A stretch of DNA of 47,570 bases. It comes from Saccoglossus kowalevskii. Taxonomy: Eukaryota > Hemichordata > Enteropneusta > Harrimaniidae. A model generated the notes under the pieces. The model was not told the origin of the DNA, ran no database searches, and saw only the letters and a program-made list of their open reading frames with translations. Shown here piece by piece: positions 3,101-32,471 of this stretch; position 1 is the first letter of the stretch, and every line of letters begins with the position of its first letter. The stretch lies in the NCBI RefSeq assembly GCF_000003605.2, contig NW_003155237.1:1030757-1078326 (forward strand), read 5' to 3'. Position numbers and translations under genes: made by a program.

Positions 3101-6100
3101 GTGAGCAGTGAAATACAAAACACAATAAAAATATACAAGAGACGTACAAAGCACCAGAAAGCAAGCAAGTAAAGCACAGTACAGATAATTATTTTTATAT
3201 AGAATTGAATTGTAGACGAGAAAATATTATTGATTTTAACGCAGAATTACAAGCCATGTAGAGTTTTTTTCTTCTTTTTTTTTAAATACATGCAACTCAC
3301 CTTCAAAGCATTCCCAGGATGCAACAGCTTTTTCATTAAGCGACCTAAAACAACAAATAAAATAATTTATATCCAGCCACAGGCTAAGAAATACAAAGCT
3401 AAATATTCTTGATTGTAGGTTTATTGTTTTTAAATAATGGTGGGAAAAAAAACTGTAGAAACATTTACATATGATGTAATAGCCTTGTCAAAAACCCTGA
3501 CACAAAATCTTTTTTTTTAATTTTTTTTATCAAAAGGGTAAAAATTATTACACAAGAACAGAACCTTGGGGTGTGGTTGGACTTATTAGAAAATATTGAC
3601 AAGTGGTTACCAAGGCAACAGTTGTTCTTGAATCTGATAAGACTTTACATATGTTGATTCTTAAATTTTCAATAGTCTCTGTTATTTTACAACTTATTGA
3701 AACCATCAAAGCAGTGTTTTTTTAATATTAAACTAAAACGTGCAATAACATGCATCCCTTAGAAGGGAATTGTTGATTGTTCAGAAATTGATGAGGTATG
3801 TACTCTCAATTCAACGTGCCTTAAGGCAGTTTGTGTCCAATTCAAATTTCTCATACTGAATATGTTACTGCACATAGTTTTTTTGCAATTATCCTGATAG
3901 CATGAACCCATTATAATAAAAGCATAATGAACATGACATGTATAATCTTTAATTGAACTTGAACATTCTTAATATCATTGGATTTAAGCATCATTATATC
4001 TACCACTCAGTCCTTCTTGAATTTAGTAAATTTGATAACATAACCCTTCGAAACATCAATATTCACTATAAATCTCACTATGAAATTTTTACTAATTCTT
4101 TATTCATTCAGCAAATTTTGAAGAAAAAAAAAAAATTCAATTTACTACAATCATAAATTAATGACATAGAGCATGGTATAAACATAACAGCCATCATGCG
4201 TAATGGTATTGATATGGCTCATGGCATTGCGAAATAATGTACAGAAATCACAATCTACAACCTTGAAGATGCATAATTATCAATTCAGTGAAGATTTCTG
4301 ACCAAAGACGCTAAGTGCAGTATTACAAGATACATATTTATATGTTAACATTAAAAAACTGTTTAACCCTTAGAGTATCAAAATCAACTTTTGCCAACAT
4401 CCACAAAATAAAACCCACATTTGTAGGCTAAAATTATGAAGAAAAAAAGTGAAAAATGCATAAAAATAGGGGAAAAATGCACACGAATTGTGCTGCTGAA
4501 AAAGTGAAATTCTATATTACTCGGTATCCTGATTTGAAAATAGCATCATAAAAGTGAATACATAATAGTCTAAATACAGCGGTCTTGAGATTATGGTGTG
4601 GAAAGTGTTACATGCAATGTACATATAGATTAATATATCACAGTGGATTTCATTGGATATAGGCATCAATATTGACGATATATTCACATTTTAGCAAACA
4701 AAGAAACAGAGAAATTTAGTCAACAATTTTAATAATAACTTCATGGTAATGCTTTGCATGAATATTCAATACCTGTATTATACTAAAAAAAATTATTATA
4801 ATGTGAAATGCTGGAATTAAACTTTTTGGGTGTTTTGTATGGAATTTATTTTCACTGATTTCTGATGAGTTGAATGTAAAATGTAGGAAAAAAAGGTATA
4901 TTCACTGGATTGTATTTTCACTGAATCATTCCTTCAGCAAAAATAGCGAAAACTAAATCCAAACGAAAATAAAGTATTTTACAGTATTGGATATATTTGA
5001 AATACTGAAGGAAGCCGTGAATAAAAAGTTCACACTACTATAGGCAGTTGTCTCTTTCAAAGGATCGTTAACTTTTAATACTATGTTTCGCCTTTATAAT
5101 ACTAACTGAGGCTTCACCAGGAACTGTAAACAAAAGGCAATACAACAAAGTAGGATGCTGAATGTAAGGAATATTAATATGAAAGCCAAAAGCAAGGTCT
5201 CATGACTACTTGGACAGAGTCTTTCATTATAAATATGAATTTTGTCCAATCCTCTGTTTGAAACATTTGATATTTCAGATACGTGTATATTTGAATTATT
5301 ACCAGTTCGTGTGTAATTCATTTGATGTGTACGAAACGCAAAACATGAAATGGTAGTACTGTACCCATGCTCAACTACCCCCCACCCCCAACTTTTGGGG
5401 CATTTCTACTGGTATTTTCATGGTCACGCCATCAACTCCAAAATGCTCTAAATTGTACTATTTGAACATTGTTTGACTTTTCCAAATACCGTTAATGAAA
5501 TTTATACAGCAACTGCCTTGAATATCGTTTGAATGTGTAGACTACAGTAACCGTGCATAAACTACGCTTCGACAACAATCTGTTAACAACCATGAAAGAC
5601 GATACTTCATCCCATATTCAATTTACCCTTTAAAAAAAGTCTTTTTTTATTTAAATCATGCCATTTTTTTTTTTTTTGCCTTAGACATCAATAATTCACT
5701 TTCGCATCGCGTTACAAGAAGGTCTTTGGGAATTTCCATAGAATTGCGTTGGTACAACACTGCATTCTGATTGGTTAATAACAGACTTGACCTACCAGGT
5801 CAATGGAAATTGTGGTAGGTCAAATCATGGGAGAAAATATTATGACAGAAGAAATTGCTTTGCATTGAGCATTTGTGTAAAATTGAACACATTGTACAAT
5901 GAAGATAATGATAAAAATCTTGATATTGTTTTCTCACACACACCCTAATAATATACATAGTAAATTGTGATGGTGTGAAAATAATATTGTACTAAAACAT
6001 ATTTATAAACATATTTTGTTATATTATATTTCGTCATTGTAAAAGTGTTGAGGAAATCAATGATGATGCACCTCATTTCACAATTTTAATTTCACCAAAA

Positions 6101-9100: not shown

Positions 9101-12100
9101 AAAATGCTAACCTGATTACAACATTTTGTAATTTGGATACGTAAAGTTAGCAATCAGATCATGTTAAAAACAAACAAACTGATGCTTCAATAAAGAAAGT
9201 AGCTTATGAGCAGGGAGATATTCACAGTCGAAAAGTGTAACTCACGAATAACATTAAAAAAAATGAATGAAAAACTTTTGCAGTGAAAAGAAAAAAACTA
9301 ACAGTGTTGGATTTAATGCCTGAAGAAGAAAAAAACAAGGCGACCTATTATAAGATTAAGAGACATTCAACGTAGATAGAATAAGATTGTGTTCACATTG
9401 ATATACAATACAAGTGATCTGTAAAACCTGTTAACATGCTCAATAATTTAATTAGTAGACAGATACTATCCCACTGTATATGCTATACCTGAAGAACATG
9501 GCGTGTAAATATCACCAGTTCATCACATTAACGCAACATGCTACCTGCTTTCTCAGACTATTAGCGGAGAAAAGTCCACTCTCACAACATCGAATGAAAT
9601 TCTACATTCATCAATTGAGCTACACAATGCTTGGGCAAATGAGCCTAGGCTTAACCCTATGAACAGATTATTTCACTTTTTTCACTGCCATTTTTTTAAA
9701 TTATAAAATACTGTAAAACATTTCTTTTTAGCTAGCATGTTATTTTAGCTAATTTAGCTAATCTGTAATTTCGCTAATTCAAGATGTAGCTAATTTAACA
9801 GTAAGTATATTCTCACTTTAGCTAAATTAAGATTCTGTTAATTCATGCCAAGAATCAAATCCACTAAAATTGCATGCAGCTATTTCAACGTGTTCTACAG
9901 TAGGAAAGAAGAAGTAAAAATGTGCAAAATCTTGCATTAAAATTTGTCTAAAAAGATGATACATGTAGTATTCAAAGTGTACTACGTGTATATCAATGAA
10001 CGTTTCAAATTTGATAACAAGCAGCCTATCGGCTGAGATACTAGTAGCTCCGCTGTTAGCAATGCACATTTCAATTAAAGAACTGAAGACATCATTAGAA
10101 AATGAACAATATGAATAGTATCAAAGCAATCGGACTTACAGTTTTTAACAAGAAGTCGAAAATATCACTTTTTACCAAAAATTACAAAAATATTCACCAA
10201 AATAAATAGAGAATTGAAGATATCATCACAAAACAAACAAATCTGAGAGAGGTCCACATGTAGTACCTATATATGTAATATCAAAGCAATCGGACTTACA
10301 GTTTTCAACAAGAAGTCGAAAATATCACTTTTTACCAAAAATGACAAAAATATTCACCAAAATTAGAGAACTGAAGATATCATCACAAAATGAACAAATC
10401 TGAGAAAGGTCTACATGTAGTATCTATATATGTAATATCAAAGCAATTGAACTTTCGGTTTTTAACAAGAAGTCAAAAATATCACTTTTTACCAAAAATT
10501 ACAAAAATATTCACCAAAATTAGAGAATTGAAGATATCATCACGAAATGAACAAATCTGAGAGAGGTCCACATGTAGTACCTATATATGTAGTATCAAAG
10601 CAATTGGACTTGCGGTTTTTAACAAGAAGTCGAAAATATCACTTTTTACCAAAAATGACAAAAATATTCACCAAAATTAGAGAATTAAAGATATCATTAC
10701 AAAATGAACAAATCTGAGAGAGGTCCACATGTAGTACCTATATATGTAATATCAAAGCAATTGCACTTGCGGTTTTTAACAAGAAGTCGAAAATATCACT
10801 TTTTACCAAAAATGACAAAAATATTCACCAAAATTAGAGAATTGAAGATATCAACATGAAATGAACAAACCTAAGAGAGGTCTACCCAAGGTACATATAC
10901 ACCAAGTATCAAAGCATTCAGGCTTGTAGTTTTCAAGAAGAAGTCGAAAAAGTAAAACATTGACAAGGACGACGGACGACAGACGACTACGACGGACAAT
11001 CACTCATATGATAAGCTCCGCTCGACAAAGTCGACAGCGGAGCTAAAAAGTGCACTTTAAAGCAAAGATTGATTTTTATTAAAAATGCAAAACTAATCAG
11101 ATAGCATGTGACTACAACTGTGCGAAACCCACTGATGTAGAGACAAATCTGAGATGATCTGTCACAAACCAACTGATATGTAAAGAAGCAATTAAATAAT
11201 AATATTGGAAAAAAAAATTATTAGGCTGTCTATAAGTGTAGACGCTATCAATGCGAGTGTACGCGGCTTCAACTTAAACAGATTATTAAGATAATGTATA
11301 AATCAATATTGACTGAATACGGCATTTATGAACTCAAATCCAGATTATTTTGTCAAATATTAATCTATACCTATCTAATTGAATTATTGTGATAAAACAT
11401 TTTTTATTAATAAGAAATCAAAAGGTACCACAGCTGCTTGTCAATGTTATGTGAATTCATATAAAATAGTAAAGATTATTATAACAACACAATGAGCAAC
11501 TCGTAGTGCAATATTGGTTGCGAAGTTGATCTATGCAAGATAACGTGCAAGTCACTGGTGAGAACATTATTAAAGAGTAGAATCAACTGTGAATCCAATA
11601 CATGTACGTCACTGTGGGGAGTTCGCTATACCATATATCAGCATGTATTAGGCGTTTTAAGCCGCCTATTTTTATAACAGTAAATAACATAGTACTGTAT
11701 GCCGTAGCTCTGGATCGTGTACAAGCTGATCGCACTACGCTGAGACGCGCAGATGACACATTGAGATCTTCTTATGAGGTCCTCTTTTTATAAATTATTA
11801 TGCTTTAATTTTCATGTTGCAAACCAGAAACGCTGCATGATTTTGTATTAACGAATTTAACATCAAAATGTTATAACACAAACCAAAATTGTTTGCGTAA
11901 TTTAAATGTAGTAGTACAAAAAATGTAATTTCTCTTGGCTCCTACAACATCAAATCTCGCACATTTCTAGCAGCAAAAATTAAGTGGTTTTTCAGAACTC
12001 TCGCCCGATAGTTACACAATGTCCAACTAATAGCATGTTATACTGGTACTCAAAAATTCAGATCAAAGTTCCAGGTATATGTAACATTTCACAAATGTTG

Positions 12101-15100
12101 CTGCTGTTTAATCAGTGTAAACATACCATACCATACAATACAGCTGAAGACAACATACCGGTATAAAAATATGGATTTATGGAGAAAACACTCCTATGAG
12201 TCATAAGAGTTATACTGTGCATAAATGTTCAGGGTAGAAGAAAAACATAAATAGTCGTGTTCAGGCTACACCAACTACGGGCTACGGCCTGGATTTAAAG
12301 GGCGGTGGTCATCACGTCACACATGCACAAGATATATGGATCTCATATAAATATAAACAAAGATGGCGACTTTGACTGTTGCGCAGATCAACAAGTACAA
12401 ACTGAGACACTACCAAGTTTTAATTAGGTATTTTTTAGGTGATTGGAAGGTGTCAAAGGAGTCACTGGCGGTAATCAGTGCAAGTCAAATTAGTGCAAGA
12501 CAAATGTCGCACATGCGCAGCACGACGACTGCCGCTAATCTCATATGTTTGCATATGTATAACAACAGTTAGCAAGGGCTAAGGAACACCCAAACTTGTT
12601 AGGAATATACAAATCTTCAGTACTCTTACTCTGTATTGTAACCAGGGACATAATTAGTTTTATGCAAGATTGCAGAATGACCAGAAGTATTAAAAAGTCT
12701 CATCAGTCAGCCCTCAGTCCAATTTTTTCCCCACGAATTATTGGCATTTTGGGCAATTTCGCCAAAGCTAAGTATTCGCGCACACTTCCTTAAAGCATGT
12801 GCTAAGGGTCCTGACATAAGAAGCGCTATTTGCCTCAACACAGGGGTTTAATTATTATGGACAAGTGACCGAAAAACTCATCATACCTCAATAAATTGTT
12901 GTGGCCCATATTGCATGTCAATATCATGAATATCAGATTTCAGTTTCCAAGGAGCCGATATGAGTAACAAGGTAGATAACAACTATCGTAAAATCTGTAT
13001 TAGAAGCCGCATCCCTAATAGAAGTCACACCCAATCTTTTTGTACAATTGAGAACCAAAAATTCATCATTTCTCATATGTGTAGATGCTCTAATAGAAGC
13101 CGCATCATTTATGTTGCATCGTACCATTTTAACAGAAGCCGCGGCTTCTAATACATATTTTACAGTAGTCATCTGTCATGATATGGTAAATCCTTTAATC
13201 CGGTATATGTTTAATAGTTGCAGACACACATAGATAAGGGTAATCTCACACGTTCACACTAGTTAACCCCTTTGAACCCCATAATATTTCCTGCCAATAT
13301 TTTGCGACACAATTATGCAAATGTGTATGTTACTATAATTTTTGTTATATGTATGACCGTAATTACCTAGATCTTTATCAACATAAAAGGTGAAGAGCTG
13401 ATTTACAGATGTGGTTTATATTATTGGTGTGTAGCTAATACAATGCCGGTTTACACCCTGCGTATGAATACAAGTGTGGCCAGTTTACAATTAGCATAAA
13501 TACATTGGGTGTACAGAAATTAGAGTACTGTGAAATACTTTACTTTAGCTGGAATAAATTTTTGCTGAAAAGACTTTTTGAATCATTCGTTCAGCAAAAA
13601 TAAATTCCAAGCGAACAGTTGAACAACAAAGTAAATAAGGACAGATTCCACCAGACAACAGGCCATCACAGAGATTACATTGGCGGACATAGAATTATCA
13701 TCACCCTCCGCCTCATTTGCCAAAATTATAGGAAATACTAGAACTTTTAGACAGTTTTCAAAAACATCTACATGTATATACAACATAATCAAAACATTGG
13801 AAGTCAATGTTCTCATAGAACAAAATAATGATAACTTCAAACATACCGGTAGTACAGATGTTTACATGCCAGAGGCTAAACATTACCAAGGATATATACT
13901 TCCATTTGTACATGCTTGCAAAAAGACATAACCACTATTTCAAAGTCAGATTTCTAATTTGCATAAAAGTCTATCGGCAATCTAAAAGCTTCAATAATAT
14001 ACATGTATGCATTATATGGCGTCTCTTGTCTTAATCAGACATAACACTATGACATTTTATTTTGGTTATATGACATCAAAAGATTTGAGTGACTGCCAGC
14101 TGGGTTTGATATCAATCTGAGCAGAAATATTTATGATCTAAAGTTTAATTAAAATAAATAAAAAGCAAAAAAATAAATACATCACTATTTTAATGCAAAT
14201 TATGTTTTTCGTTTATTCTTTATATTGATTTTGCTTGTTTTTTAAACATTGTCCGAAACACACATTTTCACAAACTCAATGTAAACATACTTTCATGAAA
14301 ACTTGGGAGATGTTTGACCTCCGTAAAATTGATAATTTTGATTGGATGCAGCTCGAAACATGCACCAAACCAGAATTTGAATAGGATTGACCTTGGTTAG
14401 CATAGGTGGTTGGTCAGCAGCAATGCCAAGCGTATTAAAAAAATTTTTCTCTAGCAATTGAATACTAGTTCTGTGCATACCAATATCATTATATTTTCCA
14501 CAGCCCTCAGTTTTTAAACAGTATGAAGTCCCAGAAGTGCTAGACAACCATCTCATAGACAAAAAAAAAATCTGTTTACATTTTTGATCTGCCATCATGC
14601 GTCACGCGATGACGATTCAGGCATCATGCACATGTTATTAAAAGCAGATATAGTGATTTTGTGAAAATATTTGGTCAGGTTTATACAATACAAGTTGTGT
14701 CATTAGTACATTATAGACATTCAAGTAGAAAATATTTATATTGTATATCATACAGGTAAAAACGACTGATCTACAGTGCACAAAACACAGACAATTGCAA
14801 TTATTTCCGCCCCACAGTTGTTGGCACAGAAATTTAAAAGCTAACAAAATTGCTGATTAACTGTCGCAGCCATCATAAGTCTTACAAACCCAAATTGTTC
14901 AGCTGAGAAACTCCATTAGTGTACATATACTGCATGAGACAATCTTATAAAAGTTGCATGTACATTTCATTCAAGAGCACTATAGTGAGACTCTTCAACA
15001 TATACAAGCGCTCTATCATTAAGGAGTACAGCTCGACTATAAAGTGCTGCAAAGCAAATGTATATGATATTCAAAGAACAATACACACATGATCTGAATG

Positions 15101-18100
15101 TACAAATGTTAAGCGATCACCAACCGCAGCACGAAAAATAACCCCAAATTTAGGCCGATTTGTTGTTATTAAATGCTACTTTTATCAAGGGTAGGAGCTT
15201 AAAAATATTCTGCAGAAACGCCACTACTTGTGGTGTCACACTAAAATGTCAGGGGACCGGGAATGACGTAGAAAGGAGTTCAATTTACGTCATCGATATT
15301 CAGAAAGTAAAGAATGTAATCCTGTCCTTAGAAGCTTTTAATATGAAACTATCCATATGATGGATTAGGTACACACACACACATATTACCGTAAAATCTG
15401 TATTTTGAACAATTGAGAACCAAAAATTCACCATTTCTCATATGTGTAGATGCTCTGTTGCATTGTACCATTTTAATACAGATTTTACAGTAGTAGTGAA
15501 TGGCAAAATAAAATTATACAATTAATGCTATTGACGCTTTACATGTGCTTCAATGGGAAATGCACATCTAATAGAGAAAATACGGTATTGCTAAATCAGA
15601 TTAAATCTTATAATTTGTTTGTTGGAAAGGAAAAATGGGGTCGCTGATTTCTGAAACTGAAACTGATTATTGTATTTCATCATAGCTGCATAAAATATAT
15701 GCAATGATGACCTTTGTATAGTGACAGTGGAGGCAGAAAATATTGCAGGTAGAAAATTTACATAATCAAGTGCTATATTTCTTGTTTTTTTGAAATTTCT
15801 TAATTTTGAGGGGCAATCTCGAGGACAGAATATTTTCCTGACTCCTAAAATTAGCGAATATTTTTGTTGCAAAATGATTTACATTCTTACAATGTATACT
15901 GCAATATTCATAATAACGGTACTAAGGTTAGACATTTTGTATGGTCAATTTATATGTGTTTACCATGAAGTAGTTGCAAAAGACTTTTTTCACAAGAAAT
16001 AGAAAATATTGACAAAAGGCTATGAAGCGGCCATATTATTTTTCATAATCCTTTTGTTTTCACTTCAATAATTGGCTGAATGTTGAAACACAAATGTATT
16101 TGATTCAATTTCAGCACATGGTAATCAAGTTTATAGCCCTAAAAAAATTGAAATAAACTGAAAAATGTTGTTCAATCTTGTACATAGTATAAGAAATTGT
16201 AGAAATAAATATATATTTATTATTTATATGTGCCAATTATTCAAAATAATTCACAGTCTAATGTGAAATCAATTAAACACCTTGTTTGACAAGTGTATAT
16301 CATGTAGACAATTCAAAATAATCTTGACTAAAACAGCATAAGAGAAAACAGATTGGCTCTATATACATGTACATTGTATAAGGGGAAATTGACAACATAC
16401 ACTGATGTTTACAGAGTAAATATTATTATTTATGAAGGAGCATTCCATTGTGTAAATAGGCAGCGAAGGTAATTGGCAAATATAACAGTCCACTTTATGG
16501 GAAGGGGGTATAGATAAAAGAAGTGATATTTTTTTAATGATACATTTTCCTACTCCCTGTCTTCAAATATTTGGCAAAGACACTTTACCACATCATTTTA
16601 AAAGACACAGCTGAATTAAGCCCCTTGTAAGACATCTGCGGAAAGCCCTAAAGCACAATTGCATGTACATTAATTGAGTAAACTGTAATTGTATGGTTTC
16701 TAGAATTTTACATGGTTTGAAGATCTAACTATAATTACATGCATTCTGCACATTCAGGAAGCTTAAAACATCAACTAGAATTAACATACATCGCATGTAC
16801 CGGTAATTCAAAGAACTCACTTGATTATTATTCTGATACTACTTCTGTAATTTTAAATACTGTTTATAATTAAAATATATTTAAAATATATCTAAATGCC
16901 AGGCAAAATATCAGTCAAATTGTTTTCCAATATGCATGCAGGTTCTCACTTTTGAAATTTTTATATTATCATAAAAATAAGACTTTTTATTGAAATGTTA
17001 TTTCCAGAAATTCTGTCAAAAACCAGATGCTGTGATATGCACATTCTCAACTACCATAAAGGTAGCACAATGACTGCTCATCTGTTGATGTTAAAATCTG
17101 TTTTTGACTATGATGATCGACCAAACTCAACTTCAAGACTGGATTTCAGTTAAACACATCATTTCATATTTTCAAATATTTGAGATAAAGATCAAAATAC
17201 AAACATGAATTCTTAGTCCGGTCAAGATGGCTTCACTTAAGCACAGAAATTAATTTGAATTACCGGTAAGCAAAAACACAAGAAATTAATTAAAAGCGAA
17301 AATATAATATTATGCCAATGGGCAAAACAAAATCATTTGCAACAGGTCGATACAATAGTTGTCTCAGACTGTGAGTCACACGTTTACGTAAATATAAATG
17401 CCCTGTTGTATATATCGCTTTGAGACTCATATCGAACAAAGATATGAAGCAACAACCGCTGCACTTAAAAGGTACTGAAGATTGTACCTCAAAGAGGGCA
17501 AATGCGATATTACTAATTAAATTCTAACCTTCGATTTATGAACAAATTACAACACTTAGATGTTACAGTCACCATAGCAACAATACACAGCAGGACATTG
17601 ACAACGCAATACTTTGGAAAGCAAATTGAGATGAATTTCTGTTGCCCTATTATTTGTAGTTGATGAGTTAGTTGTGGAGACTTAGTGAGCACTTATTCAT
17701 GCAGATACAAGAAATCTATTATCTGCAGGCAAGCTCACATCACTGGTCCATTAAACCTCAAGTACAAGAAGTGCAAAGAGCAGGAAACATCAGGAAAATG
17801 ACAGTTGAAGCCTCTTTGTGCAATCGAGATTAACAAGATCACAACCAGATGATGATATTTTATAAAACTACTGCAATCTCATTCTATAATTTTTTACTAA
17901 TTTAGGAGAACTTGTAGCTGATTCTGCTAAAATAATTAATTTCAGTTAAATTAGGTTTATGTTAATAACTTAGCCCTAAAATGGCTCTCAAGAAAGGGTA
18001 AAATCTATGTACAAACATAAGCACAGAGCAAATACAGTATATGATTAAAATTGCAAAGCTTAATGCCAGATGTTTTGCACATTGCATTTTTAAATCCCTT

Positions 18101-21100
18101 TTCAAATGCAAGATTGTTTCTTATATTGAAAGCAATGTTTGAAATTGAGGTGAAGGCAATTACCGAGAAAATTCACAGTAATTTCTGTTAGAAATGCTGG
18201 CATTGTAATTGGGTGCTCTCAGATGTTAAAGCCTTGTCAAGGTAGATGTTAAATATGCATGCATATTTCGACATTGTGACAGGGCAGGTCAAAAAATCCA
18301 GAAAATATTGCTTTTTATACAAATATGACAGTTATTAGTTCTCATTTATTATTCAACTTACATGTACATTTTTTTTCTCTGGATGTGTGACCTGTGTTAC
18401 CAGGATGTGTGACCTGTGTTACCAGGAAGTATGACCTGTGTTACCATCATTTAACTAAATTCAACCCAGTCTGGTTGTTTGAAGATAGAACACTATGTTA
18501 TCCAACTTTACTGAAGATATCAGAGCTGGGTTCAAGAAAGCAACATATGCAGCACCCTTTGACTCACCTCAAAAACGAAGAGAATCCCATCAAGTTCTTC
18601 TCGTTGTGCTTTGTGTACTTTTTGCTTCAGTGTGCTTTCAACGGAGATGAAATTGTCATAAAATATTTGAAATATGTGCGAGTAATATTGCTCAAAGAAT
18701 GACTTAGCCTCGGATGCATCATAGTGATCTGAAACAGAAAAATAAATAATTCAGTAACTTTGCAGAATAATTCCTGATCTTTTTATGAAATAAATCTTTA
18801 AAAAATTCATTATTATATTATAAATTATAATATAATAATTAAGTTAATTTTAGTCATGTAAAAAAAAACATAATAGTGCTTGAGATACAATTGCAAAAAT
18901 CAGGATTCAAATTTTTTAAATTATGCAAATTAACATGTATAAATTTTACACAAAAAAATAATCATGTTTTCAAACTTCTCTGCAGAACTGACTATACGAT
19001 ATCCACAAAAATGTCAAAGAGTACGTATTTCAAACATACATCTAAAAATTGGGTAATTGTTATGCAAATTGGGTAATTAATCAGCCCTTATGAATTTTCA
19101 TAGGTACTAGTAGTTCTTATATAATATACCCAGATTTACTAGAACTCTGATATTTATTATGTAATTAATATAAATGTAATTGGATTTGGACTGCAGGAAA
19201 TCACATGCACCATATTTCACTAAAAAGCAGTGTAAACACTTGTAAAATACTGTAAACAATCTGTCATTAAAAGTGATTCACAGTGAATTTCAGGTGGGTC
19301 CTAGGGAGTCACAATGACATTTACTTGAAGTCCTAGGTAGCCACAAACATCATCAACAGTCAGTGACTTTTACTTTGGTACATGTACTAGGACTAATCCC
19401 TAATATCTATGTACCAAATTTCAACATTCTTCAAATATACGAGAAAAAATCTAACAAATGCCTATCTATTACGCTAATAATATACTTATTATGCATGAAT
19501 TTCAACAAAAACTAGTCAGGTCTTTGGACAAGTAGATTTACTAAGATTCATGATTTTATGAGTAGTAAATCTTGAGATATTTGTGGAATAGCTGATAATT
19601 GAATAATTATTTATTATTTAAATTAGACAATTAACATGCATGACTTTTGACCAAAAACTAATCTGGTTTGTGAATTGTTCCAGAGCAACTACGTGAAATT
19701 TGTGTTCCAAGAGGTATCAATAGAAAATCTGCTTATAATTATGCAAATTTAGGTAATTAATATGCAATGACTTAAACCAAACAAGCCATGCATGGCACAA
19801 TCCCCGTTAGTTATCAAATTTAAGATATATAGTTTGACATTTGTATCTGATCGTCAAACAAGTACATGTCCATATTGAGCGATATTGCTCTGGAACAGCA
19901 TTCAAAATCAGCCATTTTGAATACATGTATATATATAACATGATGTATAACGAATATATAAAATTTAAATATAATCAGTCAAAGCATTTAAGAGATATGG
20001 CTCTAGAAGCCCAATCATTAAAACAAAATGGCCGCCAGTCAGCCATTTTGAATCCAATCTGAAAAATAAAATGACGTGCCTCAGGAACCCGTAATGTGTA
20101 ATGTTTGTACCAAGTTTGAACGAAATCCACCCATAAATGCTTGATATTTGATGATTTTTAGCACAAAAATGACTACCATTCAACCATTTTGAATAGGATA
20201 GTCAAACCAATATATCTGTTTATCTATGACATGATGTATAATGAATATTTAAAATTTTTAAATATTATCAGTCAAAACAAGTCGGAGATATGGGTCTAGA
20301 AGCCCATTCATTAAAACAAAATGGCCGCCAGACAGCCATTTTGAATCCGATCTGAAAAATAAATGATGTGCATCAGGAACCTGTAATGTCTAACAGTTTG
20401 AACGAAATCCATCCATAAATGCCAGAAATGCTTGATATTTGATTGTTTAGCACAAAAATGGCCACCATTTGGCCATTTTTAATAGGATCGTCAAACCAAT
20501 ATATCTGTCTATTTATGACATGATGTATAATAAATATTTAAAATTTGAACATAATCAGTGAAAGCAAGTCATAGATATGGCCAGAGAACCACATTCATTA
20601 ATACAAAATGGCCGCCAGTCGGCCATTTTGAATCTTATCTGAAAAACAAAATTATTTGCATCAAGGTCCCATAATGTCTAATGTATATACCAAGTTTGAA
20701 CAAAATCCATCTGTAAACAGCCGAGAAATGCTTGATTTTTAGGATTTTTTAGCACAAAAATGGCCTCAAAAATGAATCAGATCATAAAACAAAATGATGT
20801 GCAGGCATTTCTAAGATACAGGTCCGGACGCACGCACAGACGCATACACGCACACACGCACAGACACACGGAGGTCAAAACATAAGTCCTCGTTTTCGGA
20901 CTGCGTCCGAACGGGGACTAAAAAACAATAGTCAATACTCAATGCCTTACTAGTAAGCTGTCCATGGTTCAGCGAGCAACATTAAAAAAATACATTAATG
21001 ATAATACTGTATTAAATATTTTCATAAAATTAAATGCTTTATTATTAGAACAACAAACATTAAATAAGCTGCTCTGATAACAAATAGAATTTGAAATATC

Positions 21101-24100
21101 ACCATTTTATGTTTTGGAAAACATGAAGTCTATGCTTGTGATTGAGATTAGAAATATAATAATCATTACCCAGAGGACTCATCACATGAATGTGAAGCAC
21201 AGAGTGATTTTCCAATCGAGTCAAGAAACAAACAACACTGCATGTATACGATATCCAATTCAGCTGTAGATTCTTAAAACATTGAAGGAAACAGCTATTT
21301 CAAAAGGTTGAATATATAAGTGAGTGAACTTTCATATTCATGTGAAAACATACGCTTTAAGGCACGTATCGTGAAAACTAGACTATAACGGAAGACACTG
21401 CAGTATTGACATTCTTATTATGTTACGAAATGTCAAAGAATATAAACATACGTTTAATTACTGTGAAGTATAAATGAAAAGATCTACTGTGTGCAGGAAA
21501 CGCGAGACGAAATGACACAATGGGAACACAAATAATCTGCGATCTGTCTGGGTATTTTTCATTCAAAGAACAGATTGTACAGATTTCACATTTTGTATGT
21601 TTTACACACACACAGAATGAACACACACACACACATGTATGTACAGTATTATACTACATGTACATATATGCTTGGGGTTTGTTTCTTTCATAATTATCAC
21701 TGGGAGTAAAAAAAAAAAAGGTACAGCATAGAGTATGCAAATTCCATGAAAAGTAAATGCATCATTTATAAACCTTTTGATAGATTTACATAAGCATTAC
21801 ACCAAAGCAGACTCATCCTAATAATCACAATACAGTACAGCTAAACCATGTAGAAACTCAATTCAAGGAAGATATTGGATTGCATATTAATAACGACTGG
21901 CGTGACTGACATAAATAATTACAACAATAACAAGACAACATTAATAATGGGACCAATATTCTACGAGTATTTAAATCACTTTTGTCGCACCTCAGTCATG
22001 TCCAACATCATCATGCTGATTGGTATGAATGAGGTCATGTGGGAGACATGAAAACTGTGGTTGGCTTAAGGTGAGGTTGACTTCTTATTTCAGCACATGC
22101 TTCGTTAACATTTTAAAATTAATTCTTCACCTGACAGTTCAAATTTGTCTGCTCTAGAACCTTCCGGGGAATTAACGTTTGATTTGAGTTTCTACTTTGC
22201 ATGTCTTAAAGAGGGTAATGGAAATGAACGACTACAGTAAATTCTCTGTCAATTCACCATAGTAAACACAATTGTTTTTTCAAGTGTGCAAATTGAAAGA
22301 ATACATTTTGACATTCGCTATGATTTGATCTGGCATTGATAGGTTTTGCGAGTTGTTCACTTATATGGCACAGTGGCTGGTGATGCACAGAGCTTTGCTG
22401 ACAAGTTTGCAAATCTACCAAAAAATAACAACAAAACATTCATAATTTAGATGCAATCAGATCCACACAAAAATTATGACAGGGATCAAGCAGTTATCAA
22501 AGATGTGAACTCACGCATCACTATATATGGGTGCAATGAACATGGCACTTCATGTTTGATTTGATGCTTCACTGTATCCATATTACTGAGGAAATGTTAC
22601 CAACTAACGATATATGCATTGTTTAGAAGCATTAAATTTCCTTACACATACCTGTGCATGTAGCATTGTCTATGTTACAAAAAACTGAAATTTTTGTTTT
22701 AATTGTCGCAGATTTGTTGTTCTGCGATCTTTGGCCATGGAGAAGTACGATATGATAGTTAACATGCTTTCTGTGTTAATATGCCTAAAAAGTTAGACTG
22801 TTACATAAATTAATACAATTTTAAATCTTTTTTGAAACATCCAGAATGAAAAGAATACATTTAATAATTTGTGTTTGAAAATTAACTGGGTATGCGAATT
22901 CATAGAGAAACAAATCAAAAAGAGTTATATCAATTCAAGACAGGAAAAAACATGCATGGAAATACACTTAAACAATAACAAGATGACCATGACCTGGCAG
23001 CTGTCAAGGTGTTGAATACGGAGCTTTACTTGGTTCAATGAAACAGATACTTATTTCACTGTTGGGTCAATATTACAGTTTACACGACTCACAGAAAAAA
23101 AAATATATTGATCCCAGTAGTAACTTGTTCAATACTATCTCTTCAGGTCATCAAAACTAAATATCGACCTCAATTTCAGAAATACAGATATACAAATGTA
23201 TAGGGATATAGCTACATGACTAGTGTATTCTCAAGCACTAGGCGAGGAGGGATACAACTTCATGAGGATTTTCACACAGGTGAGGAATTTTGAGGAATTC
23301 TATTAAAATTTATCATAAGTACAGAGAGTCATTCTCATGCATGGATAGATTTCTGGCCGAAATTGTTTGATCAAGTATACAGCAGGACTATTTGATGTAT
23401 ACTTTTGCTGCAAATGCTATATTATGCCCCCCCCCCCCCACTGGACAAGCATCTAACGTAGTGTATTCAGTGCCGAACATTGCTATTACAAATCAGCCAA
23501 TAGTAACTACCAGTAGGATATCCATATGTACCGAGTGCATTAATGTATTTGCATGTAACACAGTTCTGTCCATTTCATAAAATTTGTTTTGCAATGAAAT
23601 TAAGGTCTTGTACCTTTATGTAGGCAATGCAATGACAAAGCTTAAACCAAACATCATTTAACATTTTTGTCAACTTATGCATACATCATCGTACACTGTA
23701 AAACAGATAATAGAAAATTCCTTGCAGAAACTGATATGATGATGTAACAAGCAGCCTGTCAGCTGAGATAGCTCCGCTGTTAGCAATGCACATTTCAATT
23801 AAAGAACTGAAGATATCATTAGAAAATGAACAATATGTAGACTTGCTGTTTTTAACAAGAATTCAAAAATATCACTTTTACCAAAAATGACAAAAATTAT
23901 CATTAAAATTAGATAATTGAAGATATCACAACGAAATGAACACATCTGAGAGAGGTCCATATGTAGTACCTATATATGTAAAATCAAAGCAATTGGACTT
24001 GTGGTTTTCAACAAGAAGTCGAAAGTATCACTTTTTACCAAAAATTACAAAAATATTCATCAAAATTAGAGAATTGAAGATATCATCATGAAATAAACAA

Positions 24101-27100
24101 ATCTGAGAGAGGACCCCATGTAGTACCTATATATGTAATGTCAAAGCAATTGGACTTGCGGTTTTCAACAAGAAGTCGAAAATATCACTTTTTACCAAAA
24201 ATGACAAAAATATTCACCAAAATTAGAGAATTAAAGATATCATTACAAAATGAACAAATCTGAGAGAGGTCCACAAGTAGTATCTATATATGTAATATCA
24301 AAGCAATTGGACTTGCAGTTTTCAACAAGAAGTCGAAAATATCACTTTTTACCAAAAATGACAAAAATATTCACCAAAATTAGAGAACTAAATATATCAT
24401 TACAAAATGAACAAATCTGAGAGAGGTCCACATGTAGTACCTATATATGTAATAACAAAGCAATTGGACATGCGGTTTTTAACAAGAAGTCAAAAATATC
24501 ACTTTTTACCAAAAATATTCACCAAAATTAGAGAATTGAAGATATCATCATGAAATGAACAAATCTAAAAGAGGTTTACCCAAGGTACATATACACCAAG
24601 TATCAAAGCATTCAGGCTTATAATTTTCAAGAAAAAGTCGAAAAAGTAAAACATTGACACGGACGACAGACGACGGTCAATCACTCATATGATAAGCTTC
24701 GCTCGACAAAGTCGACAGCGGAGCTAAAAATATCCCCAATATTACTTCCCCACATTTTATGTTTCAAAACTTTCTCTACTTTTGTAGGTGTACTCTTAGT
24801 CATATACATCTATGGATCACATAGAAATATGGATTCACATACCGTTCACACACCGCATTTGTTGAAATAGAATGGCAAAATATGAGTTATTTGGATCATA
24901 GAAACAAACACCGATGTTATTCAAGTATTAGCGCATTCAAAGCAAATATAGTATGTATAGTGTGAGCTCACAATGAAAAGAGAAAAGATCTATGCATGCG
25001 ACAATTGAATTTTTATGGTATACAATTAGTAATACAACAGCATAATTATTCATGCTACTGTACTGTACCTACATGTAGAGAAATAATTTAAGGTATGTGA
25101 TTGCAAAACATCATGTACCCTCTCAATTCTACACTTTGATGATGCATACAAAAATAGATACAAGGTTTTCCTTCCACTCATACCCAACAAAATACAAAAT
25201 GGAAACATATTTTTTTGTTTTCTGGGACTCTTATAATATAATTGGGCTTATTTATACTGGTCAGCAAAACTGAAGTCCCTTATGCCCAAGGGCAAGTACA
25301 TTTTTGAGAAAATGTATTCTACCATTCCATCATAGTTGTCATCTCTCATAATCTAGTATGCCTAGCTGATTGGAAGAGAGTCAATCATGTGGAATGGAAT
25401 AACTTACAATATACCACCCAGTTTATGCACATTACACTAACATTCCACCCTATTGGCATCTGCATGTAGGACAAACCATACAAGTTCACGGTAGCAAATT
25501 TTGACATTGAAATACTGTACTCTGAGAGTCCAAGTACAGACATGTGTCGCAAACTTGATTACTATATGACAACCAGAAAATAATTGCCAACAAAGATGCA
25601 GATAACCACCATAGTATTTCCCTTCCTGTGGCACAAGCAGCTGATTAGATAGTGTCCGTGTAAATTGCTTGGAACATCACAACAACACAAATGAAGCGCA
25701 CACTTTTAATTGTGTACACAAATACAACTAGGTCAGCAGTGGGGTCAGCAGATGACTGAATAACATCAATAACATAGAATAAACACATTGAAAATAGGAT
25801 AAATATTTCCTTATACAGATCTATTGTCCCTGGACTGTTGTGCCTGGCTGCAGTGCTTGCCATGGACATTCGAATCACTGATTTAGTAAGTAAACTCTCA
25901 AAGTTGAGATAACAGAACAATTATTAACTGTAAGCTTCGGTTATCAAAATATTTGTCTCTCTGATGTGACAATAACTTTCAAATCTTCCTATACCTTCAA
26001 GGGTAGATAATAATTATATATTGCAGACCTTGTGAAATCTAAATGAGATAATTTTTCTGAGGTAACTTGGGTAAAATTGTTTTAGTGCATTCAGGTGCTA
26101 CCAAAATTGTAATCCCATCTCGAACGGAGCAATTAAGTTCATATGATAAGCACAACATATGTAAGAGAGACACATGTTAGGTATTCAACTCTGACACAAA
26201 TGAACACACATATGACAGGTATGTATAATGTCTGCAAGTAATCCACAATATATATACATTTATACTACATGTATTGAAACAACAAAATAATTTTTTTATA
26301 AATTTTACAATTCAAACTGAAGCAAGAGATATTATTTTTAAATCATTACCGGGAGTATACACTGAACTCGTCAAGCGGTTGGTTGGATTTAACTACCGCA
26401 ACAATTTATAAATATTTACATTTCTATAAAGATCATGAGAATTAGTGAAAATATTTCAGAGGAATAGTAACACACAATGATGGTCTTAAATGCCTCCATG
26501 TATTCAAGCTCTGTCAATTAAGTATACATCTTTTAAAGACATTAGATTTAAATTAGCAGAACAGCATGGGAACCCGGTGGTGTAATTATAGATGTAAACC
26601 AATTGACAAGTAACTCGACAAGCAGCTTTTTTGTCAATTGTGTCAGACAGCAACAAAGATGTTACAGTGAAATTCCATATTCAATATAAATTAAATTGAA
26701 TTTTGAGTTGAATTAATTATACTCCACACTAACACTTTTATAATAGACTGACATAACTAAACCTGAACGGTCACAGCCATCAAACCAGTACGTGTGCAAT
26801 GTTTAAAAAAAAAAAATCTGATGACATTTATACACTTTAAAAATACTACATCCACAAGAAATAGATACAATTAATCTCATCATGTACCACCACGTCTGCA
26901 AAGACATAATATACAAATACTAATGGCATTGGTATTTCAAGCCTTGAGGCAACATTGTAATAAATATCACAATGGTCGACAATAATTAATATTGATGTTT
27001 GAAAGAACATCAATAACCGTTCACCTTTCTGCAATATAAAATAAATCCTATTTTGTATCTTAGTATGATTTAATAACATAAACATGCAGTTAATTTGGAC

Positions 27101-27928: not shown

Positions 27929-30900
27929 GTAAGCTCAAACCTGTCGTGCGAAAAACAGACGTCGCCCAGGATACGATGCATGGCAAATCGACTCGAAAAC
28001 TGCCATTGCTATTTTCAGTATGCGCTAAAACGGACTTATGATGGTTAGTTTGTAATTGAGCTAACTATGACGTGGTTTACTTATCTACGTCAAATCCAGA
28101 TAACCGCACCAGTAAACTAATAGCCTCCCGGTTTCTATATTTATTCTTTGTTTGGTACCTGTGGGAGATCTCGTGACTTGGGGATGTCATTGTCACGAGG
28201 TGGCGCACTTGTCAATGTGGCTATAGTGTATTTTGCCAAGTACATTTGTACTAGTATTCCAATAAGTATACTTGTATCATCAGCAAGCCTTTCATTTTTA
28301 GTGGTGGGGGCACTCAGTACTTGATGCCTTGGGTGTACTCTCTAGCCAATCATTAATCAATAAAAACAAATATTAATGTTTAAAAATATGGTACAGCATT
28401 CTGCCTTCTCTGTGCTATAGTACCAACAATTTATAAAAGGATATGCAATGTGCATTTACATGTAGGTCTCAATATGATCAGGAAATTGCAAAACAAGACT
28501 GCATTATGAGAAATGTGTAAGTCTGTTGAAAAAGTGCTTAGTGTTAGTCTTGACTGATTTTTGTTGGTTCTTGTTCATTCACATGTATGCATGTATTACA
28601 TGCTTTTTTGAATAAGGCAATGACCTTGCTCATCTCTGTTTGCGTAACCGGAACCTTTCCAAGTGTCCACTGCGGTCGGTCGTGTCATCGGAAAATGTGG
28701 TCAATTGACACTCACATGGGACACATGAGATCTTCATTGCATATCACCATACATTGATATTAAAGTTGCATACCCTTATCTTATAAATCCTTGCTGTAGT
28801 TCTTAATCAAAAAAGGGGCGTATTTGTTTGTCTTGTCAGCACATAGTAATATATTATTTACAGTCGGAATTTTTTACTGCCTGGATCACTGCCTTTCAAA
28901 TAAAAATTGTGGTTTATTTTGCATTACAAATGTATTCTAATATTATTTATGTAGGTACAGTTTTCAGAGTTGGGTTTAAGTTACTACCAATTTCATTGGA
29001 ACTTCTCCATTGTTTTTTGTTTTGCATTTTTCGCTTGCTGTATTTCAAACTAATTTGTATTTTTAAAACTGTCTAGGCATTCAACAAATTGTCATTATTC
29101 AGTAAAATGGTAAATAACCTGTATGATTGAGTCATTAAAAAGCATTTGCTTTGTCACTGATGTGACCAGTAAGGGTGACCCCCCCCCCTCCCTATTGACT
29201 GACTTGAACCAACTGCTAATGTACGTCCTATTGGTAGTAGCAAATGCATCAACGTGCACAGCTACTACTCTATATAGCAAAGTCGAACTGACTGATCAGT
29301 CTTCAAATTGGTTGCTAGTCATCAAAAATTGAGTCTGAAACAATTAGTTTATATGAAATCAACATTGTTCAACTTCTCATGAAATTTCATCAAAAATATT
29401 TTAAAAAAATGCATTCTATTCTGTAATGTGTAATTTTGTTTACTACTGGTAATGATTGCTTTTCGCACTCAGACTTTCAGACAGACATGTTAAGTAGTGC
29501 TAATTTGATTCAGATAATGCCTTCTATTGCCAATATTCATCAAATTCATGTCATGAAGAAAAGGTTTTTAATTGACTAACTGAATTGATGGATTCTGTAT
29601 GAAATTTGTGTCAAGTCCAATTTTATTTCATTATTATTTTATTTAATTTAATAAAATCTTTTACCAATATTTTTAACTTTTTCAGACATTATTCAAAAAA
29701 TATTTACAAAAATATATAGTCACAACATTGTCTAAGGCAGTAAAATCTATGGCCTGAAATGTCCTTAGCCAAAGTGTCCACATGAAATGTTTACATTCGA
29801 AATGTCCACAGCCAAATTATCGAGAGCCGAAATGTCCACAGTTAAAATGTTTACATTGAAATGTTCACAGCCGAATTATCCACACAATTATATACATCCA
29901 AATTAAAATATCCACAGCCAAAATGTTAATCTTTCACAAGATCAGTGTCATTCTGATTAATGTCTTTCTTTCCCATGTTGACCGATTTTATCCTATGTTA
30001 ACACTTTTAGAGAATTTAACATTACATAATTTTCATTCATTGATTTATTCCACTAGGATCTGTAATGGGTTCTATTCAAAGTGTTGAAGTTTCACCATGT
30101 TCATCTGAACCGTGTGTATTCAAGAAGTCTTCTAATGTAACAATTACGATCCACTTTACAGCAAGTAAGTTCATATACATTTGTAATCAACTCTACCATC
30201 TAGTGTATTTTCTGTGTACCTCCATTTCACCAATAGATTTTTCAAGGTTTTTAATCAAATGCATACATATAGTGCAACTGTTTGAAATGCTTATTTCAAA
30301 AGGATGTTCCAGATTGCAAGATTTGAATGTGACCTATTATGTAAATTGGTCAGATCTATGAGCAGCTTTCACACACAAAAAATGACAAAATCAAAAATTA
30401 AAAAAAGTACCAGTAAAGAAATTAAAAAAAAATAACTAAAACCCCCAAACAGATCAGAATGTAATACATGTACCTAAAAACTGCAAGTTTGAAAGTGGTG
30501 TCCAAGTCATTCCCTTGCTTTGTATACATTGTATATAATATATTGTAGATATCACCATAGGCAATAGACTGTATGATACAAGATACTAGTACCGTTTAAC
30601 TCGCACCTCTTTGTGAAAACCATCTCAATGTACTTTCAGATGCCATGATAATGCTCTCTCAATCCTAGCATTTCCCCATGAACTATAAAGCCAAGATGAA
30701 AAGTATGCAACCAAGAAGATGTCATTCATCTGTGAGGGTGTATGTCATGCTTTGTATCAGAACCAACAAAAACACTTAAAGTCCTGTGAATATACCCAAT
30801 CTGTACTGTAATGTAATGGATCAGAGATTTGCAATTTTGCAATTATCTATTTTTATATATTTTTTTTTATAGAAGAAGCAGTTACTAAGGCAACTTCATC

Positions 30901-31355
30901 TGTGCATGGTATCATTGGGGGTGTGCCAATTCCATTCCCACTTCCCCAACCAGATGCATGCAAAGACAGTGGCCTTAAGTGTCCACTTGTATCTGGTCAA
31001 GCCTATGATTTTCAGCAGCAACTTGAGGTGAAATCATCTTATCCATCGGTAAGTGTATTCTGGATTTTTCTGAAGCTGCTGCACAGTTGGGTGTAAAAGG
31101 TTTCCTAAGTTTATTCATTATTGGGAAATGAGAAGACAACCTCAGATAGGCCTACTCAAACATCTAGACTAATTGTAAACACTTATTGATATTTGTTGTA
31201 ATTTCTGTCATTGTATTCATTCATTCATTCAATCAAGCCTATTAAAATGTTTCTCATAATTGTTTCAGTTGAAGTTGGTGGTTGAATGGGAAATCAAAGA
31301 CCAGGCCAACAAAGACATTGTCTGCATTGAAGTGCCTGCACAAATTTCCAGTTAG
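27838..31355 (+). CDS. NPC2: NPC intracellular cholesterol transporter 2 (ML domain), complete
   Basis: Exons are 27838-27928, 30057-30164, 30873-31048 and 31269-31355, encoding 153 aa (human 151). Residues 1-22 form a signal peptide (LFALFCVAVLPSIS). The mature ML domain has all six family cysteines: C30, C45, C50, C96, C103, C144, pairing 30-144, 45-50 and 96-103 by family precedent. The N57-V-T sequon matches the conserved glycosylation site. The signature GGVPIPFPLPQPDAC (about 82-96) and the C-terminal LKLVVEWEI are diagnostic. In the family it binds cholesterol in a beta-sandwich pocket in the lysosome lumen and passes it to NPC1. An in-frame upstream ATG at 27754 exists, but it would bury the signal peptide; the ATG at 27838 with G at +4 is preferred. 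It is divergent from RALGAPA. Confidence 0.97.
27929..30056. other. NPC2 intron 1
   Basis: This intron is 2.1 kb and AT-rich. It contains a C10 run at 29179-29188 and a degenerate minisatellite at 29755-29935. No other gene was seen. Confidence 0.6.
29755..29935. repeat. Degenerate AAATGTCCACAGCC minisatellite
   Basis: AAATGTCCACAGCC and variants (AAAGTGTCCACATG, AAATGTTTACATT, AAATGTTCACAGCC) recur about eight times at irregular 18-25 bp spacing. This looks like an old, decayed short tandem array. Confidence 0.55.
30057..30164 (+). CDS. NPC2: NPC2 exon 2
   Basis: It encodes residues 31-66 plus one base: SVMGSIQSVEVSPC, the C45/C50 disulfide loop and the N57-V-T glycosylation sequon. The acceptor is TTCCACTAG and the donor is GTAAGTT. 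Confidence 0.95.
30873..31048 (+). CDS. NPC2: NPC2 exon 3
   Basis: It encodes residues 67-125, including the GVPIPFPLP signature, C96/C103 and VKSSYPS. The acceptor is TTTTTTTATAG and the donor is GTAAGTG. Confidence 0.96.
31269..31355 (+). CDS. NPC2: NPC2 exon 4 (stop codon TAG)
   Basis: It encodes residues 126-153 (LKLVVEWEIKDQ ... VPAQISS), with C144 closing the long disulfide. The acceptor is TTGTTTCAG. Confidence 0.96.
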   Translation: MKLVVEWEIKDQANKDIVCIEVPAQISS

Positions 31356-32471
31356 TTTCATCAGAAACCCCAAAGACAGTGAGGGGAAAGTAACTAGTTA
31401 CTATTCTAGAATTAATAAGACTACCCCCCCCCCAAATGTTGTTGTTCTGATAACAAAATCTTGACTCCAAACTTGTTTCACTAAAAGTTATTCAACCATG
31501 CAGGATTAGAGCAAAAGTGTTAAATTTCAGAGGATTGTTAGCAACTGCCAATGAATGTACAAGAATTATTCAAAATGACGTTGAACCACAACATGCTTTA
31601 TCAGAACTAAACAATTTTTGAGGGGATGTAATTTTAATAGAATTATTGTACACAGTTTTTCAACATTTATCTATTGAGGGACTGTGCTGCAGTAGTGTGT
31701 AGTAGTTTCAATGTTCACATTTAATATTGCTATGTTAGATACTACTCGCAAACCACTGCCGTCACATACAAATGTATTCCGACTGAATTTCAGTTATGAA
31801 GCCTTCACTGTGGGTCAGAACACTGTAAACATTGAGGTACTGTGATTGATGTAAAACGCAAACCTGGAAAGTTATTCATTTTATGAAAACTTGTGGTCTG
31901 TTTTCATCTCTTGTTAAAACAATGTAGGTTTACGAAAATTTCATTGGTGTAAAAGTTTGTGGTTTACATTCTCAAGATGGATCCAATTAAACCATGACTA
32001 CTGTGATTTGCAATCTGTCTGAATCCAGTCTGACAGGAGTAATTCACACAAGGCAAAAAGTGGTATAAATATTAAATATTTTTAATGTAAAATATAACAA
32101 TACTGAATGAGATATTTTGATAGCATACACTTTTATTAACTCTTAATTATTCAGAATTCCACCAAGAATTTCATAAAACAACTCTTTGGAAACTGATATA
32201 AGTAATCTTGGAATTTTTTATATAAATAATCAAGATACACTATTACAGTTTTAGAAACTTATTCCATCTATGCATGCATCCTTTTCACTTTTAATAGAGC
32301 AAAATACAATATTCACTCAAGGTGTAATTGTAACATGCCTTCTCCCAACCCCAATGTTTGTGTAAATATCAATACTACCCTAATCTTTTTCCCTATAACA
32401 GGGTATTTTTATATATTTTTTCCAATAGTTAAGTAATTCTGCAAACAAATTGAGAAGTGTTTTTGGTTGTT

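What the first reader, a model, noticed from the sequence alone, without database searches (positions are those of the whole stretch)
10016..24730. Two unrelated-core element families share one Helentron/HINE-like architecture
Family 1 (10016-11049 and 23746-24730) and family 2 (19801-20925) have different tandem cores (157 vs about 290 bp). Both have a short subterminal inverted repeat followed by GTTAG on the left, a simple-sequence GAC or CGCA run before the right end, a right-hand hairpin made from the same terminal motif, and a CTAAAAA end. That points to one transposition machinery mobilising different satellite-like cores, as proposed for pearl elements and HINEs.
Basis: partly seen in the sequence, partly recalled or inferred. 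Interest (0 to 1): 0.72.

Follow-up and report, generated by a model that had tools for sequence, protein, structure and literature searches.

The report
Two tandem-repeat-carrying rolling-circle transposon families
Three short, gene-less pieces of jumping DNA in an animal genome carry two different sets of tandem repeats but have the same style of ends, which fits a known class of rolling-circle transposons; this is an ordinary example, with its direction and one end corrected here.

Summary
The observation largely holds. Family 1 (10016-11049 and 23746-24730) is an 88.8%-identical pair. Family 2 is one copy with an unrelated tandem core. Their ends share one layout.

Two corrections. (i) Matched to published anatomy, the elements read 5'->3' on the MINUS strand. 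This corresponds to the published 3' end and moves family 2's border from 19801 to 19780.

So corrected, the layout matches HINEs and non-autonomous Helitron2 elements. Unrelated arrays on related flanks are already in print for oyster Cg_HINEs, and structurally alike but different sequences for Pearl elements. The edge monomers of the two family 1 copies match, so the array travelled with its flanks.

Not tested: autonomous partner elsewhere in the genome, empty sites, copy number. The whole-genome search did not complete (13 tries). "One machinery" is plausible but unproven.

Verdict: new members of a known kind, of low surprise.

The parts
10016..11049 (-). Family 1 copy A, whole element
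   Evidence: 88.8% identical to copy B with the similarity ending at the same motifs
11014..11049 (-). Copy A 5' end: T-run, AG, 5' subTIR and inverted partner in one hairpin
   Evidence: DNA fold -14.1 kcal/mol, z -6.1, 0 of 200 shuffles as good (folded piece 10996-11049); coordinates
10962..10999 (-). Copy A GTC-type microsatellite just inside the 5' hairpin
10119..10882 (-). Copy A tandem core, 157 bp x 4.8
   Evidence: TRF
10045..10059 (-). Copy A 3' subTIR (12 bp, exact inverse of the 5' one) with CTAAC on its 5' side
10016..10035 (-). Copy A 3' palindrome CAGCC..GGCTG and terminal GCTTGTT
23746..24730 (-). Family 1 copy B, whole element
24695..24730 (-). Copy B 5' hairpin (one mismatch) and T-run
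   Evidence: DNA fold z -4.2, 0 of 200 shuffles as good
23840..24575 (-). Copy B tandem core, 157 bp x 4.8
   Evidence: TRF
23746..23783 (-). Copy B 3' end: CTAAC, 3' subTIR, decayed palindrome (4-bp stem), GCTTGTT
   Evidence: the palindrome does not form in the predicted fold
19780..20925 (-). Family 2, whole element (left border moved from 19801 to 19780)
   Evidence: shared 3' end AACAAGC plus palindrome on the window strand
20885..20925 (-). Family 2 5' end: T-run, AG, 5' subTIR and imperfect inverted partner in one hairpin
   Evidence: DNA fold -10.5 kcal/mol, z -2.3, 5 of 200 shuffles as good (folded piece 20856-20925)
20826..20874 (-). Family 2 GTG/CGTG-type microsatellite
19926..20765 (-). 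Family 2 tandem core, unit about 291-302 bp, about 2.9 units
   Evidence: self-BLAST; best ungapped period 293
19780..19810 (-). Family 2 3' end: CTAAC, 3' subTIR, 12-bp perfect palindrome GCCATGCATGGC, GCTTGTT

Best explanation
All three are non-autonomous rolling-circle transposons of the Helitron2/Helentron branch (HINE type), from two families, both lying on the minus strand. Inferred mechanism: a Rep-Helicase made elsewhere nicks at the 5' T|AG junction and peels off one strand through the array. The 3' subTIR then pairs with the 5' subTIR, opens the 5' hairpin and, with the 3' palindrome and GCTTGTT, marks the stop; the single strand is inserted in a T-run without target-site duplication. 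Shown here: the anatomy, a concerted difference of the subTIRs between the two families, and that the family 1 copies share an array edge as well as their ends. Inferred: the enzyme, the nicking, the strand pairing and the insertion.
For: Anatomy in minus-strand orientation: TTTTTAG + subTIR + inverted partner + microsatellite + tandem repeats + CTAAC + subTIR + palindrome + GCTTGTT. The order is that of Cg_HINE and of Helitron2 (5' repeat 0-2 bp from the end and in a hairpin; 3' repeat about 20-30 bp from the end, just upstream of a hairpin). Distance from the 3' subTIR to the end here: 27, 21 and 17 nt (from coordinates). The 5' hairpins fold better than shuffles in all three (z -6.1, -4.2, -2.3). 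Between families the 5' subTIR, its partner and the 3' subTIR differ together: pair 3 is C-G vs T-A and pair 4 is T-A vs C-G (sequences and folds). Strict template: 0 of 400 resampled windows. End-to-end likeness between families: 2-24 of 2000 shuffles and 2-8 of 2000 random window pieces score as well. By eye, the flanks show T-runs and no repeated target sequence. Edge monomers A5 and B5 are 95% identical to each other but 77-85% to the inner monomers.
Against: No Rep-Helicase was recognised in the window (27 of 27 ORFs of 90 aa or more), and no empty site or genome copy could be examined (genome search did not complete). The 3' palindromes do not fold better than shuffles (z -0.7, -0.8, -0.3) and copy B's is degraded. 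The 5' hairpin scan alone is weak: with 8 or more pairs, 3 sites seen against 0.79 expected; with 7 or more, 4 seen against 2.4 expected. Family 2 has a single copy, so its borders rest on motif likeness to family 1, its subTIR is only 9 of 10 bp, and its 17 nt (19 if counted from 19801) is just short of the published 20-30.
Confidence: 0.87

Rival explanations
1. The elements are MITEs of a cut-and-paste DNA transposon, and the inverted repeats are ordinary terminal inverted repeats.
For: Inverted repeats at both ends; Pearl/CvA was first called MITE-like (passages of PMC5874043). Other repeats in this window do look like MITEs with long terminal inverted repeats (read by eye).
Against: The inverted repeats are asymmetric: at the very 5' end but 17-27 nt inside the 3' end, with different hairpins at each end. 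By eye, no target-site duplication in the flanks of 3 of 3 copies.
Confidence: 0.06
2. They are mobilised by an endonuclease-less Helitron2 rather than by a Helentron, so strictly they are non-autonomous Helitron2 elements and not HINEs.
For: The ends fit the Helitron2 description at least as well as the mite HINE one, whose 3' subTIR lies 38-60 bp from the end against 17-27 here. Helitron2 targets TTTT|T or TTTT|C.
Against: The microsatellite plus tandem array is the HINE pattern of oysters and flies, and Helentron proteins are reported across invertebrates.
Confidence: 0.3
3. The two families have separate histories: each has its own autonomous partner, and they share only generic features of the class.
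For: Different subTIRs and unrelated cores. Cg_HINE group 3 elements are unrelated in all modules, and the Cg_HINE authors could not link their elements to 10 autonomous Helentron-type elements.
Against: GCTTGTT, CTAAC, CTTAT and an inner C(G)GAC-N3-GTC(C)G stem are shared at matching positions, and the ends are more alike than shuffles.
Confidence: 0.4
4. They are short satellite arrays whose flanks are coincidental, not transposons.
For: The tandem cores dominate the length.
Against: Copies A and B share the sequence outside the array (94-103 bp on one side, 155-167 bp on the other, parts of it resembling degraded core units) and stop matching at the same motifs although 13.7 kb apart.
Confidence: 0.02

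Closest known systems
Cg_HINE elements of the oyster Crassostrea gigas (PMC7492417: abstract, Results, and part 1 of 2 of Discussion read)
   Same: Order of modules: 5' subTIR, inverted partner, microsatellite (GTC-type in several), tandem repeats, 3' subTIR, palindrome; T-rich insertion, no target-site duplication reported; unrelated arrays on related flanks within one genome.
   Different: No element sequences in the text to compare. Family 2's unit of about 291-302 bp is longer than the 13 published clusters (138-181 bp); family 1's 157 bp falls inside that range.
Pearl elements CvA, CvE, CvG (Gaffney 2003 not read; seen through passages of PMC5874043, PMC11136912 and PMC9659126)
   Same: CvA: 2-6 copies of a 156-bp repeat (157 here), subterminal inverted repeats, microsatellite; members differ in sequence but share structure.
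   Different: Two CvA primers printed in PMC5874043 show no match to the three elements (1 of 6 comparisons at p 0.145, the rest 0.84 or more), so no sequence kinship is shown.
Helitron2 group (PMC3627910, passages read)
   Same: 5' repeat in a hairpin, 3' repeat about 20-30 bp from the end upstream of a second hairpin, T-run target, compensatory changes.
   Different: No Rep-Helicase recognised here; microsatellite and array are not in the passages read.
HINE-Mo and DINE-1 (PMC4067079: abstract, Background, Results parts 1-2 of 3 read)
   Same: subTIRs, inverted partner (DINE-1), 3' palindrome, optional tandem repeats, flanking Ts.
   Different: Mite 3' subTIRs lie 38-60 bp from the end; here 17-27.

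Membership tests
HINE (non-autonomous Helentron) | Paired subterminal inverted repeats, about 11-15 bp | tested here: met
   Family 1: 12 bp exact in both copies. Family 2: 9 of 10 bp, 8 contiguous, which is marginal
HINE (non-autonomous Helentron) | Inverted partner of the 5' subTIR close behind it, then a microsatellite | tested here: met
   3 of 3 copies, partner imperfect in copy B and family 2
HINE (non-autonomous Helentron) | Palindrome near the 3' end, after the 3' subTIR | tested here: met
   Stem of 5 or more in copy A and family 2; 4-bp remnant in copy B; folding energy alone not significant
HINE (non-autonomous Helentron) | Insertion in T-rich site or TT, no target-site duplication | tested here: inconclusive
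   T-run on the 5' side and TT on the 3' side, no duplicated flank by eye in 3 of 3, but no empty site could be compared
HINE (non-autonomous Helentron) | Same ends on an autonomous element coding Rep-Helicase-AP endonuclease | not tested
   Whole-genome search unanswered in 13 tries; in the window none among 27 of 27 ORFs of 90 aa or more by Pfam
Non-autonomous Helitron2 | 5' ATIR 0-2 bp from the 5' end, pairing into a 5' hairpin | tested here: met
   3 of 3 if the Ts are counted as flank; PMC4067079 counts such Ts as part of the element
Non-autonomous Helitron2 | 3' ATIR about 20-30 bp from the 3' end, just upstream of a hairpin | tested here: met
   27 and 21 nt for family 1; 17 nt for family 2, slightly short; palindrome 2-9 nt away
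Canonical Helitron (Helitron1) | 5' TC and 3' CTRR ends with a single 3' hairpin, A|T target | tested here: not met
   Ends are TTTTTAG and GCTTGTT, with a hairpin at the 5' end and a palindrome at the 3' end
Pearl/CvA | Sequence similarity to the published element | tested here: inconclusive

The most novel reading that the evidence does not exclude
One Rep-Helicase recognises the fixed parts shared by both families (T|AG, inner stem, CTTAT, CTAAC, GCTTGTT), while the subTIR is free to change as long as its three copies (5' repeat, hairpin partner, 3' repeat) change together. Such a swappable pairing code would let one enzyme mobilise many families with unrelated satellite cores.
Probability: 0.3. 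Interest if true: 0.5.

Novelty: new member of a known kind. Interest (0 to 1): 0.22.

Why it matters
It adds two families to the evidence that rolling-circle elements carry satellite-like arrays around animal genomes. It also gives a corrected end template (TTTTTAG-subTIR-partner-CTTAT ... CTAAC-subTIR-palindrome-GCTTGTT) that can be used to look for the autonomous partner, a link left unresolved for the oyster elements. The architecture and the idea itself are already in print.

Tried and rejected
Collection searches for relatives of the ends led nowhere. Viral contigs, left-end 19-mer: 1 hit, L001, an IMG/VR contig that I read by eye as phage genes, taken as chance. Core pattern: 0. Family 2 5'-end pattern: 0 in viral contigs; 1 in genome contigs, L002, an Omnitrophota contig where the match lies in what I recognise from recall as a ribosomal protein L34 coding sequence, taken as chance (500 of 8000 bases read). 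Family 1 5'-end pattern: 0 in viral contigs. BLAST against plasmids (family 1 copy B) and phages (family 2): no match. Rfam at gathering threshold: no match in the window. These collections are built from viruses, prokaryotes, phages and plasmids, so absence of an animal transposon there means little.

A loose scan for further HINE-like elements (motifs CTTGTT and TTGTT) gave many AT-rich hits; its null, run for the CTTGTT form only, had hits in 19 of 40 resampled windows; dropped. A scan for 5' hairpins found the three elements plus one further site at 38208 with an AGCGG continuation instead of TTAT; not pursued. The other AACAAGC or GCTTGTT sites (7596, 14233, 27433, 34551, 39797) are not among the hits of the CTTGTT scan or the strict scan. 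The idea that family 2's unit is a dimer of about 145-bp monomers was rejected: only about 45 bp of likeness between the halves (Smith-Waterman 31 vs maximum 25 of 100 letter shuffles). In the monomer table a sixth piece of copy A (A6, 115 bp, about 50% identity, mostly flank) was set aside.

The canonical-Helitron, MITE and plain-satellite readings were considered and set aside for the reasons given under rivals.

The Pearl membership row went from not met to inconclusive. 
Full report
What is there. The window is animal-like DNA: of 27 stop-to-stop ORFs of 90 aa or more, Pfam recognises an ML domain (E 4.9e-13; NPC2-like is my recall) and a C-type lectin domain (E 1e-11) above their cut-offs. 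Family 1 has two copies, 10016-11049 (A, 1034 bp) and 23746-24730 (B, 985 bp), 88.8% identical over 1035 alignment columns. Each has a 157-bp tandem core of 4.8 units. Family 2 has one copy, whose core repeats at an offset of about 291-302 bp with 81.2% identity. The two cores are unrelated by BLAST and by Smith-Waterman of one monomer against shuffles.

On the minus strand the elements begin TTTTTAGCTCCGCTGTCGAC-TTT-GTCGAGCGGAGCTTAT (A; B has one change in the partner) and TTTTTTAGTCCCCGTTCGGAC-GCA-GTCCGAAAACGAGGACTTAT (family 2). In each, the subTIR folds onto its inverted partner (z -6.1, -4.2, -2.3; 0, 0 and 5 of 200 shuffles as good). Then come the GTC or GTG microsatellite, the tandem core, CTAAC, the 3' subTIR, a palindrome and GCTTGTT. 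The palindromes are CAGCCGATAGGCTG in A, a decayed CAGCTGACAGGCTG in B, and a perfect GCCATGCATGGC in family 2.

Fit to published anatomy. The Cg_HINE paper (Results, and part 1 of 2 of Discussion) gives 5' subTIR, complementary IR and microsatellite on the left, tandem repeats in the middle, 3' subTIR and palindrome on the right. Six of its elements share GTCY, GTCC or GTCK microsatellites, and it reports insertion in T-rich DNA and no target-site duplication. The Helitron2 paper (passages) gives a 5' repeat 0-2 bp from the end and in a hairpin, and a 3' repeat about 20-30 bp from the end just upstream of a hairpin. It suggests that pairing of the two repeats destroys the 5' hairpin and sets the replication endpoint. 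Distances here are 27, 21 and 17 nt. The mite HINEs have about 38-60 bp, so the spacing here is closer to Helitron2. Helentrons group with Helitron2 and have similar termini (PMC5148889 passages), so the ends alone cannot tell the two apart.

Chance. A strict template gave copy A and family 2 only, against 0 full matches in 400 windows resampled by a first-order Markov chain; 3'-end candidates were 2 seen against 0.0275 expected per window. The template was built after seeing the elements, so this describes rarity and is not an independent test; copy B was missed by it. Less strict scans were not discriminating (19 of 40 resampled windows with hits; 3 hairpins of 8 or more pairs against 0.79 expected, 4 of 7 or more against 2.4). 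The 3' palindromes alone are not exceptional in folding energy. Aligned end to end, the ends of the families are short and gapped (5' A with family 2: 34 of 45 aligned identical, 10 gap columns; 3': A 28 of 31 with 17 gap columns, B 26 of 34 with 8). They are still more alike than chance: 5' 5 and 2, 3' 24 and 3 of 2000 shuffles as good (A and B); 5' 3 and 2, 3' 8 and 3 of 2000 random pieces of the window as good. The stretches compared were chosen by eye, and the random pieces may include the elements.

What the copies say about mechanism. The monomer next to the 5' end is 95% identical between A and B (A5-B5, tree support 1.000) but only 77-85% identical to the inner monomers of either copy. 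Inner monomers reach 97% across copies (A4 with B3 and B4), but A3-A4 within copy A are 96%, so their one-to-one pairing is not resolved. The common ancestor of the two copies therefore already had this edge variant beside inner-type units, and the array travelled with the ends. Between families, base pairs 3 and 4 of the 5' hairpin differ on both sides (C-G to T-A; T-A to C-G), and the 3' subTIR follows except for one wobble-compatible change. That is one contrast between two families, so it is suggestive only.

One machinery? The families share T|AG, an inner C(G)GAC-N3-GTC(C)G stem, CTTAT after the hairpin, CTAAC and GCTTGTT, but not the subTIR. By the rule in PMC4067079 (at least 11 bp of identical subTIR) they are different families. 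Related Rep proteins are likely; a single enzyme is not shown. Unrelated arrays on related flanks (Cg_HINE group 2) and wholly unrelated HINEs (group 3) are both in print, and the authors could not link 10 autonomous Helentron-type elements to theirs.

Limits. Copy number, empty sites and an autonomous partner elsewhere were therefore not examined. The collections that answered are viral, prokaryotic, phage and plasmid; their single pattern hits, L001 and L002, are taken as chance.

Verdict. A correct but ordinary observation: two families of HINE / non-autonomous Helitron2 elements, new members of a known kind, with orientation and the family 2 border corrected.

Noticed in passing
37376-37531 and 45490-45640: A repeat, 95% identical between the two places, whose reverse complement has a B-box-like GGTTCGAGTC (motif from recall), so perhaps a tRNA-derived SINE. 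At the first place it abuts a 44-bp tandem array at 37532-37695. ARAGORN found no tRNA gene in the window.
   Followed up: partly
1383-1575, 2085-2292, 4822-4986, 32471-32689: MITE-like family of about 165-220 bp in both orientations, with terminal inverted repeats like ACTGTAGAATACTTTATTTTCGC (read by eye).
   Followed up: partly
12984-13167, 2840-2994, fragment 15403-15478: Second inverted-repeat family with CTGTAAAAT- or CGTAAAAT-type ends and AGAAGCCGC motifs (read by eye).
   Followed up: partly
12351-12485 against 2750-3039: 12351-12398 matches 3039-2992 and 12395-12485 matches 2842-2750, both on the opposite strand: apparently the same repeat without the inverted-repeat element at about 2842-2992, i.e. 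a possible empty site for it.
   Followed up: no
19926-20765: Halves of a family 2 unit share a segment of about 45 bp, an imperfect palindrome of the form AAAATGGCCGCC..GCCATTTT (one unit compared).
   Followed up: partly
30044-31093 (+) and 39977-40480 (-): Exons of an ML-domain protein (second exon above Pfam's cut-off, first below it) and a C-type lectin domain; at 13586-13861 (-) a below-cut-off match to 7tm_2.
   Followed up: no
38208 (-): A TTTTAG followed by a 7-pair hairpin, but without the CTTAT continuation; probably chance.
   Followed up: no
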